Shown: piece by piece, positions 34,533 through 55,259 of the stretch
How the letters are laid out: each line of letters opens with the position of its first letter
How positions within the stretch are numbered: position 1 is the first letter of the stretch
DNA from: Natrinema saccharevitans
Lineage (GTDB): Archaea > Halobacteriota > Halobacteria > Halobacteriales > Natrialbaceae
DNA: 64,000 nucleotides
NCBI RefSeq assembly: GCF_001953745.1
Contig: NZ_LWLN01000001.1
Coordinates: 930,001-994,000, forward strand
Direction of reading: 5' to 3'
Program-made: the position numbers and the translations under genes
Notes under the pieces: generated by a model
What the model was told of the DNA's origin: nothing
Seen by the model: the letters and a program-made list of their open reading frames with translations, nothing else
The model's database searches: none

Positions 34533-34598
34533 GGGGTGGACTCGACACGCCGCGCGTCACTCGACCCGACGGCCGACGTGAGGTTAAGTAGTCGGCTC

Positions 34599-34681
34599 CT
34601 ATAGTGGCAACTGAAACGATTGCCAGGCTGCTCGCAACGCTGTTGTGCGATCAGATGTGCAGTGACGGTCAGCTGCTATAG
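34599..34681. repeat. ~83-bp palindromic dispersed repeat, copy A
   Basis: Begins CTATAGTGGCAACTGAAACG and ends GTCAGCTGCTATAG. It shares the layout of copies B and C: terminal CTATAG-type ends, GAAACG near the left arm, CGCAACGCTGT and TGTGCGATCAG in the centre. It shares its last CTATAG with copy B, so the two are head-to-tail with overlap. Confidence 0.75.
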
Positions 34682-34759
34682 TAGCGCTTGAAACGGTTCA
34701 CACCGATCGCAACGCTGTCCTGCGATCGGGTGTGCATTTGATTTTCAAGCGCTACTATA
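34677..34759. repeat. ~83-bp palindromic dispersed repeat, copy B
   Basis: This copy has perfect 17-bp terminal arms (34677-34693 TATAGTAGCGCTTGAAA; 34743-34759 its complement) and an inner stem CGATCGCA...TGCGATCG with flanking CACAC/GTGTG, so the whole unit folds into a long hairpin. It lies in the 458-base gene-poor stretch 34533-34990. Confidence 0.85.
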
Positions 34760-34959
34760 CTATCGTCGAATCCGGCGCACGCGGTCCCGATGCCCCGTCG
34801 AACGTAAATCAAGTGTTGCGATCGGTAGTACTCTGTTGGAGGCGACGGGAGCCACAGACAGTCGCTGCACACCCGACCGCACGACGGCTGTGCGATCGGA
34901 GCCGAACGCGTTTCGACCGGTACGATATCGGCCGTCGACGCGGCCCGGCGCGACCGCAC

Positions 34960-54586: not shown

Positions 54587-54696
54587 GCGGAGAAAACGTG
54601 GAGACTGGACAAACAATTGATAGTGCTGGAGACATCTATGAGGACAGTGTAGACGGTGAACAGGAAATAATTGATCGAATGATGTACTTAATTTAG
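54583..54696 (+). CDS. Possible 37-aa ORF overlapping the end of cobQ
   Basis: A GTG at 54583 overlaps the cobQ stop as GTGA. The frame reads [20 protein letters not shown], then [17 protein letters not shown]. The peptide is acidic as expected for a haloarchaeal protein, but the DNA (from about 54600) is AT-rich, unlike cobQ. It could be a small gene or the remnant of a longer one. Confidence 0.4.
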
Positions 54697-54731
54697 TTTT
54701 AACTTCCCAAACTCATTCAACTCAACGATAC

Positions 54732-54950
54732 ATGGTGAAACCAAAGAATACAGCTAGAATATTGGATATTGCTTTATTATTTAGTATAGGCGTATATCTA
54801 CTTGGGAAAACAGAGGTGGGGCAAACAAATATGGACGATCCGCTCGTCCTGTTAGACCTTTGGCTTATAACGCTTTTTACCGTAGCGGCTCACGTTCTCG
54901 TTTGGTATAATCGATGGACGAAATCCAACGATAAATATAGTAACCGCTGA
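54732..54950 (+). CDS. Small membrane protein
   Basis: 72 residues with two hydrophobic helices (ARILDIALLFSIGVYLLGK and VLLDLWLITLFTVAAHVLVW) and a basic tail. The DNA is AT-rich and the codons differ from neighbouring genes, suggesting acquired DNA. A TATA-like tttagttttaac (54692-54703) lies about 30 nt upstream. No named family recognised. Confidence 0.65.
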   Translation: MVKPKNTARILDIALLFSIGVYLLGKTEVGQTNMDDPLVLLDLWLITLFTVAAHVLVWYNRWTKSNDKYSNR

Positions 54951-55022
54951 AACGATTCACACACTGATCGCAGCGCCGTCGTGCGATCAGGTGTGCAATG
55001 ACGTTCAGTGGCTACTACAGTA
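54936..55022. repeat. ~85-bp palindromic dispersed repeat, copy C
   Basis: Begins TATAGTAACCGCTGAAACG and ends TTCAGTGGCTACTACAGTA. It contains the same internal elements as copies A and B (ATTCACACACTGATCGCA and TGCGATCAGGTGTGCAATG), which pair with each other. It lies directly after the small membrane protein gene. Confidence 0.8.
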
Positions 55023-55259
55023 TTCACCCGAATAGATTTCAATAACAGATATTATTTAAGAAGAGTTTCGGTCGTGTCGCAAAGCCGTCTCGAGTTTGCC
55101 GCTGCGAGTCGCGACGGCACCTTATTACAACAGTGATGCTGCGTTAGAATGGCGTGCGCCGAGTACACGTCGTTTAGAGCGCGTTAGAGATCGGCACTTC
55201 GAAATTTCAGATTGTCGACAACTCGAAACTCTAGATCGCTTTGAGACGGTCCCAAACAC
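55023..55259. other. Intergenic region, possibly degraded DNA
   Basis: About 240 bases, moderately AT-rich at first (aataacagatattatttaag). No ORF with support. With the small ORFs and repeat upstream it forms an AT-richer patch, 54590-55250, between cobQ and the ribbon-helix-helix gene. Confidence 0.4.

What the first reader, a model, noticed from the sequence alone, without database searches (positions are those of the whole stretch)
34599..34759. Dispersed ~83-bp palindromic repeat family (three copies in the window)
Two partly overlapping copies (34599-34681, 34677-34759) and a third at 54936-55022 share terminal CTATAG-type arms, a GAAACG/GTTCAG frame and a central CGATCGCA...TGCGATCG stem. 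Copy B has 17-bp perfect arms. Size and structure resemble non-autonomous palindromic elements (MITE or REP-like). The copies flank an accessory island and an AT-rich patch, suggesting mobility; the unit does not match an ISH end known to me.
Basis: seen in the sequence. Interest (0 to 1): 0.58.

Follow-up and report, generated by a model that had tools for sequence, protein, structure and literature searches.

The report
Haloarchaeal IS630-driven 84-bp mobile hairpin (MITE)
The repeats are tiny parasitic DNA pieces that carry no gene of their own and appear to be copied around salt-loving archaea by the enzyme of a known jumping gene (IS630 family), landing on the rare sequence CTAG; this is a new family of an ordinary kind, notable for being most abundant in a genome where that enzyme was not found.

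Summary
The window holds four copies (A, B, C and a degenerate fourth, D). The genome has 106 plus-strand and 100 minus-strand copies of the arm motif against 0 in a reversed control. The unit is 84 bp with both target TAs counted (80 bp proper): TATAGTAGC-NNN-TGAAA...TTTCA-NNN-GCTACTATA. Empty sites in relatives show insertion into C-TA-G with duplication of TA. The ends match those of a 1,059-bp IS630-family element, the ISNpe3/ISNma7 group, which uses the same C...G-flanked TA target. So this is a MITE moved in trans by an IS630/Tc1-mariner-type transposase, a haloarchaeal counterpart of the pneumococcal RUP repeat. It is neither REP-like nor a known RNA family. The driver was not found in this genome, although the genome has the most arm matches of 125 in its family. 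MITE membership is well supported; transposition by IS630 is inferred, not shown. Two oddities remain: the palindrome and its core are conserved with compensatory changes, and nearly all ends carry a stop codon in the frame of a TAG stop codon used as target.

The parts
34600..34680 (+). MITE copy A (divergent; TATAGTGGC...GCTGCTATA, TA duplications included)
   Evidence: absent from the orthologous site of relatives, which reads CTCC-TA-G
34677..34759 (+). MITE copy B, subfamily 1 (17-bp perfect arms), nested in the right end of A and sharing TATAG with it
34844..34927 (-).
   Evidence: inverted repeats I1, I24; E 1.9e-6; inside the own-only insert between flanks shared with relatives; exact ends set by eye against the consensus
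54936..55019 (+). MITE copy C, subfamily 2
54592..55259 (.). AT-rich accessory patch that carries copy C; missing from G004, G006 and G026
34597..34599 (.). left flank of the pre-insertion target: CTCC|TA|G in relatives; C is the base before the duplicated TA

Best explanation
The repeats are a MITE family of the IS630 (Tc1/mariner superfamily) group. An 80-bp element, TAGTAGC...GCTACTA, was cut and pasted into the TA of CTAG sites, duplicating the TA, by the transposase of a 1,059-bp haloarchaeal IS630 element of the ISNpe3/ISNma7 group acting in trans. The MITE's two halves look like the two ends of such an IS joined around a short palindromic core, so it probably arose by internal deletion. 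Shown: dispersal, fixed length, ends, target, TA duplication, shared ends with the IS. Inferred: that this transposase moves it, cut-and-paste, the deletion origin, and that the IS was present in this lineage and lost (or acts during brief visits).
For: Copy number and identity: 106 + 100 arm matches, 0 in control; several copies at different sites are 100% identical over 86 bp. Target: base before the element C in 51 of 60 own copies, base after it G in 49 of 60; C 132 of 150 and G 127 of 150 in other genomes. Empty sites: the focal locus reads CTCC-TA-GTCG without element in relatives. Of 14 sites tested in three relatives, 9 aligned over the junction, giving 27 alignments, all 27 empty, 23 gap-free, 12 with CTAG intact. 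Driver: of 47 IS630 loci, 33 gave both ends, TATAGTAGaCGTTAGAAATAATTGCTCAC and TATAGTAACCGTTAGAAcTTTC, flanked C..G in 25 of 33. The MITE's right half continues the match inward (9 of 12 positions at 18-29, permutation p 0.0008), its left half less so (6 of 12, p 0.056). The IS encodes HTH plus DDE_3 (PF13358, 2.8e-39) and is annotated IS630-like ISNpe3/ISNma7. Arm counts are higher in genomes with DDE_3 (median 19, n 75) than without (2.5, n 50; p 0.0004, not corrected for phylogeny). CTAG is the published preference of IS630 (title of Tenzen and Ohtsubo 1991, seen in the reference list of PMC2170065).
Against: The own genome has no DDE_3 match, no DNA hit over the IS part of a sister's locus beyond one 23-nt match at E 0.975 and only E 0.435 and weaker by protein, yet has the most arm matches. 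Positions 9-17 of the ends differ between MITE and the IS copies examined (about 4-5 of 9 alike), so the exact driver may be another, unsampled IS630. 13 of the 17 extra IS630 loci taken did not give these ends. The core is conserved more than a plain MITE needs. Transposition was not observed.
Confidence: 0.92

Rival explanations
1. REP/REPIN-like element moved as single-stranded hairpin by a Y1 (HUH) RAYT or IS200/IS605 transposase, without target duplication.
For: One large imperfect hairpin with conserved mismatches; GTAG near both ends; more than 100 copies, mostly intergenic.
Against: TA duplication at a palindromic CTAG target with about equal C and G preference on both sides; a DDE_3 IS has the same ends and target. 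Y1 genes were not searched.
Confidence: 0.03
2. Small mobile repeat (SMR) as described in Haloquadratum: inverted ends, no target duplication, unknown mobiliser.
For: Same size class (80-110 bp), dispersed, haloarchaeal (PMC3119063, passages).
Against: SMRs are defined by ends unrelated to any transposon and by no target duplication; both tested here and not met.
Confidence: 0.02
3. Conserved structural or regulatory RNA or bidirectional terminator spread as a useful module; mobility only its way of spreading.
For: Arms change in compensated triplets: 196 compensatory cells against 80.5 +/- 6.1 in shuffles; core stem also covaries; coding sequence reaches 18 of 120 flank sides against 382 of 1012 random positions.
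Against: No Rfam match; copies lie between genes of every relative orientation in the 10 annotated examples read; relatives lack it at all 9 alignable sites. Shuffles do not control for shared ancestry.
Confidence: 0.03

Closest known systems
RUP (repeat unit of pneumococcus) with IS630-Spn1
   Same: About 100 bp, about 100 intergenic copies, TA target, ends like an IS630 element that is thought to act in trans (PMC2229807, passages).
   Different: Archaeal; 84 bp; strong CTAG preference; found across the family and on haloarchaeal plasmids of other families; host lacks the driver; compensated palindrome.
ISNpe3 / ISNma7 group (IS630 family, haloarchaea)
   Same: Ends TATAGTAG, CTAG target, TA at both ends.
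   Different: 1,059 bp with a two-frame transposase gene; positions 9-17 of the ends differ from the MITE.
SMR (small mobile repeats) of Haloquadratum walsbyi
   Same: 80-110 bp, inverted ends, no gene, many copies.
   Different: SMRs have no target duplication and no related transposon.
Correia / NEMIS elements of Neisseria
   Same: About 107 or 155 bp, TIRs, TA at the termini, target duplication (PMC2229807, passages); the TATAG start of Correia elements is recalled, from no call.
   Different: Unrelated host and sequence.

Membership tests
MITE of the IS630 family | Short, no transposase gene | tested here: met
   84 bp in 141 of 150; fixed short length leaves no room for a transposase
MITE of the IS630 family | Terminal inverted repeats related to an IS630 element | tested here: met
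   TATAGTAG shared, subterminal match of one end p 0.0008, of the other p 0.056
MITE of the IS630 family | TA target duplication | tested here: met
   27 of 27 spanning alignments empty, 23 gap-free
MITE of the IS630 family | Multiple dispersed, near-identical copies at unrelated sites | tested here: met
MITE of the IS630 family | Cognate transposase in the same genome (usual, not defining) | tested here: not met
   the sister G004 has two DDE_3 matches
MITE of the IS630 family | Mobilised in trans by the IS630 transposase | not testable with these tools
   needs a transposition assay
REP/REPIN with RAYT | No target duplication | tested here: not met
REP/REPIN with RAYT | Y1 (TnpA-REP) gene with flanking copies | not tested
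SMR (Haloquadratum) | Ends unrelated to any transposon | tested here: not met
SMR (Haloquadratum) | No target duplication | tested here: not met
Curated RNA family (Rfam) | Match at gathering score | tested here: not met
   0 matches in the window

The most novel reading that the evidence does not exclude
The element and its IS630 partner are built to land on TAG stop codons without harm. CTAG is the target, and when C-TAG is a gene's stop codon the inserted end reads TAT-AGT-AGC-NNN-TGA in the MITE and TAT-AGT-AGN-CGT-TAG in the IS: both add four codons and then stop, in either orientation, although the stop codon used differs (TGA in 304 of 318 MITE ends; TAG in 64 and TAA in 2 of 66 IS ends). 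Selection for gene-safe insertion would help explain how more than 100 copies are tolerated, and with the compensated palindrome would make this a co-adapted host-element pair.
Probability: 0.25. Interest if true: 0.55.

Novelty: new member of a known kind. Interest (0 to 1): 0.36.

Why it matters
It gives names and rules to a very common unannotated repeat of haloarchaea: 104 of 125 genomes of the family have the arm motif, and related copies sit on plasmids of Haloarcula, Halomicrobium and Haloferax. It supplies a likely mobiliser for one haloarchaeal small repeat, a question left open for the Haloquadratum SMRs. It offers a case of MITEs that persist, nearly identical, where the driver is absent, and a natural read-out of CTAG target choice in organisms where CTAG is scarce and methylated (recalled, apart from a search abstract that mentions a haloarchaeal CTAG methylase).

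Tried and rejected
Autonomous element with identical 17-bp arms in the own genome: arms with no exact mate in the list were fetched (14 stretches); nearly all proved to have a diverged mate at about 84 bp, one copy (L123) lacks a recognisable mate, as do one in L128 and one in L134 (degenerate second ends), and one is split by a 7.2-kb insert with its own IS ends. No long element with these arms was found. The one search list shows only the first places, so arms beyond it were not checked this way.

IS630 absent from the own genome made me doubt the IS630 idea at first; it was tested in 125 genomes of the family instead.

Rfam and phage records (no match) led nowhere. Paper searches gave no description of this repeat in the listings or in the passages I read; the library lacks most subscription papers, and ISfinder was not available, so it may be listed there.

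Gene-orientation survey (10 annotated examples): no consistent orientation, so a terminator role has no support from it. Stop-codon placement: of 47 flank sides where coding sequence reaches the site, 30 are in the frame of a TAG stop (p 3e-5 against one third); against other CTAG sites in the same loci (59 of 128) the excess is only marginal (p 0.04). The coding call there is a composition rule of mine, not an annotation.

Rows dropped: 12 of 210 copies not exactly 84 bp were left out of the covariation count; 14 of 47 IS630 loci without both ends were left out (L270, which lies near a contig edge, and 13 of the second batch); repeated copies were merged and the Pontibacter and Paenibacillus pattern hits gave no element. 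Counts are lower bounds because 40 of 91 and 40 of 115 candidates were scored.

Full report
What is in the window. A (34600-34680) and B (34677-34759) are two imperfect palindromes that share TATAG; C is at 54936-55019. B and C fold much better than shuffled sequence (z -7.13, -5.53), A hardly (z -1.74). A fourth, degenerate copy D lies on the minus strand at 34844-34927 (ends set by eye).

The family. Searching the window's genome (3.98 Mb, three contigs) with B gave 43 matches and with C 41, with 40 of 91 and 40 of 115 candidates scored. The arm motif TATAGTAGCNNNTGAAA with at most one mismatch occurs 106 times on the plus and 100 times on the minus strand, 0 in the reversed control. In other genomes 141 of 150 copies are exactly 84 bp. 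Of the top 40 subfamily-1 hits 13 lie on the 422-kb contig C2 (about 4 expected, p 0.00016); subfamily 2 shows 7 of 40 (p 0.13). The motif occurs in 104 of 125 genomes of the family; the window's genome has the most. Plasmid records with matches number 43, from Natrinema, Haloarcula, Natronorubrum, Halomicrobium, Haloferax and others; phage records none.

Insertion and target. The orthologous site of the A/B locus in relatives reads ...GGCTCC-TA-GTCGAATCC..., without any element. Among 60 own copies the base before the unit is C in 51 and the base after it G in 49; in 150 others C 132 and G 127. For 14 of the 30 fetched subfamily-1 sites I joined the flanks and searched three relatives: 9 sites align across the junction in all three, 27 of 27 alignments are empty, 23 have no gap there, and 12 keep CTAG. 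The other five sites could not be judged. Within the fetched loci, further empty sites (for example L238/L216, L006/L121, L219/L227, and L040/L206 apart from one base) agree. Hence the target is C-TA-G and TA is duplicated.

The driver. PF13358 (DDE_3, IS630) is absent from the own genome but present in 75 of 125 family genomes. Of 47 such loci taken, 33 show a 1,046-1,063-bp element (1,059 in most) whose two ends are TATAGTAGaCGTTAGAAATAATTGCTCAC and TATAGTAACCGTTAGAAcTTTC..., with C before and G after in 25 of 33. The 13 loci of the second batch that gave no such ends were mostly lower-scoring DDE_3 matches, perhaps another subgroup. On plasmids this IS is annotated IS630-like ISNpe3 and ISNma7; its product is an HTH frame and a DDE_3 frame. 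MITE and IS share the first eight bases (seven at the second IS end); inward, the right MITE half keeps 9 of 12 positions at 18-29 (p 0.0008), the left half 6 of 12 (p 0.056); positions 9-17 are only about half alike. That is what a MITE made from the two ends of an IS630 by internal deletion would look like, though from a relative rather than from the copies sampled.

Driver missing. Neither a DNA search with the sister's locus nor a protein search (best E 0.435) found an IS630 remnant in the own genome. The sister G004 has two DDE_3 matches. Fifteen of 50 genomes without DDE_3 still have 20 or more arm matches; arm counts are nevertheless higher in genomes with DDE_3 (median 19 against 2.5, p 0.0004, not corrected for phylogeny).

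How it works. IS630/Tc1-mariner transposases cut at the element ends and insert into TA, duplicating it (ISY100, PMC2170065, passages read); IS630 itself prefers TA in CTAG (title of Tenzen and Ohtsubo 1991 in that reference list). The anatomy fits this; the step itself is inferred.

What is not explained. The arms vary in a triplet (positions 10-12) that changes together on both sides: 196 compensatory cells against 80.5 +/- 6.1 in shuffles, slid registers 26-94. Shared ancestry inflates this. The 4 x 4 mismatch (CGAT against TGAC) and the core stem are conserved as well. The mismatch may simply mark the two different IS ends; I saw no counterpart of the core in the first 60 bases of the IS ends (by eye). 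Both kinds of end carry a stop codon at positions 13-15: TGA in 304 of 318 MITE ends, TAG in 64 and TAA in 2 of 66 IS ends, so an insertion into a C-TAG stop codon adds four codons and stops. Coding sequence reaches 18 of 120 own flank sides against 382 of 1012 random positions; of 47 coding sides in all genomes 30 are in the stop frame, only marginally more than other CTAG sites.

Compared with what is known. RUP of Streptococcus pneumoniae (107 bp, 108 intergenic copies, IS630-Spn1, TA) is the closest described kind (PMC2229807, passages). Haloquadratum SMRs look alike in size but are defined by no target duplication and no related transposon (PMC3119063, passages), both not met here. A 2024 review (PMC10969869, passages) lists archaeal MITEs from Sulfolobus, Halobacterium, Haloquadratum and others; the term IS630 does not occur in its main text. 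The genome paper of Natrinema sp. J7-2 (PMC3402447, passages) speaks of repeats only as CRISPR in the passages shown. I found no description of this repeat in nine searches of the paper library, which does not hold most subscription papers.

Verdict. An ordinary kind of element, a new family of it, with a likely driver and target identified.

Noticed in passing
L121 (G000:C1:1127500-1136200), repeat halves at 689 and about 7913: One repeat copy in the own genome is split by a 7.2-kb insert whose two ends carry the same IS end (GGGTGTCATAGAACGAGTAGCACACC...) in inverted orientation, like a composite transposon.
   Followed up: no
window 54592-55259: A 0.67-kb AT-rich patch with copy C is replaced by about 6-19 bases in relatives G004, G006 and G026; part of it (55071-55249) matches G001 elsewhere at 78%.
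   Followed up: partly
34600-34759, and L166, L175, L188, L200, L214, L215: Tandem pairs of copies 85-92 bp apart occur in several genomes, often with an N at the junction in draft assemblies; repeated insertion into the CTATAG end of an existing copy is a simple explanation.
   Followed up: partly
L287-L300: 13 DDE_3 loci of the second batch did not give TATAGTAG ends; their ends and possible MITEs were not determined.
   Followed up: no
L301 566-649 and 797-821: Beside an IS630 copy in the sister G004 lie a repeat copy and a further repeat end, so IS and MITE can be close neighbours.
   Followed up: no
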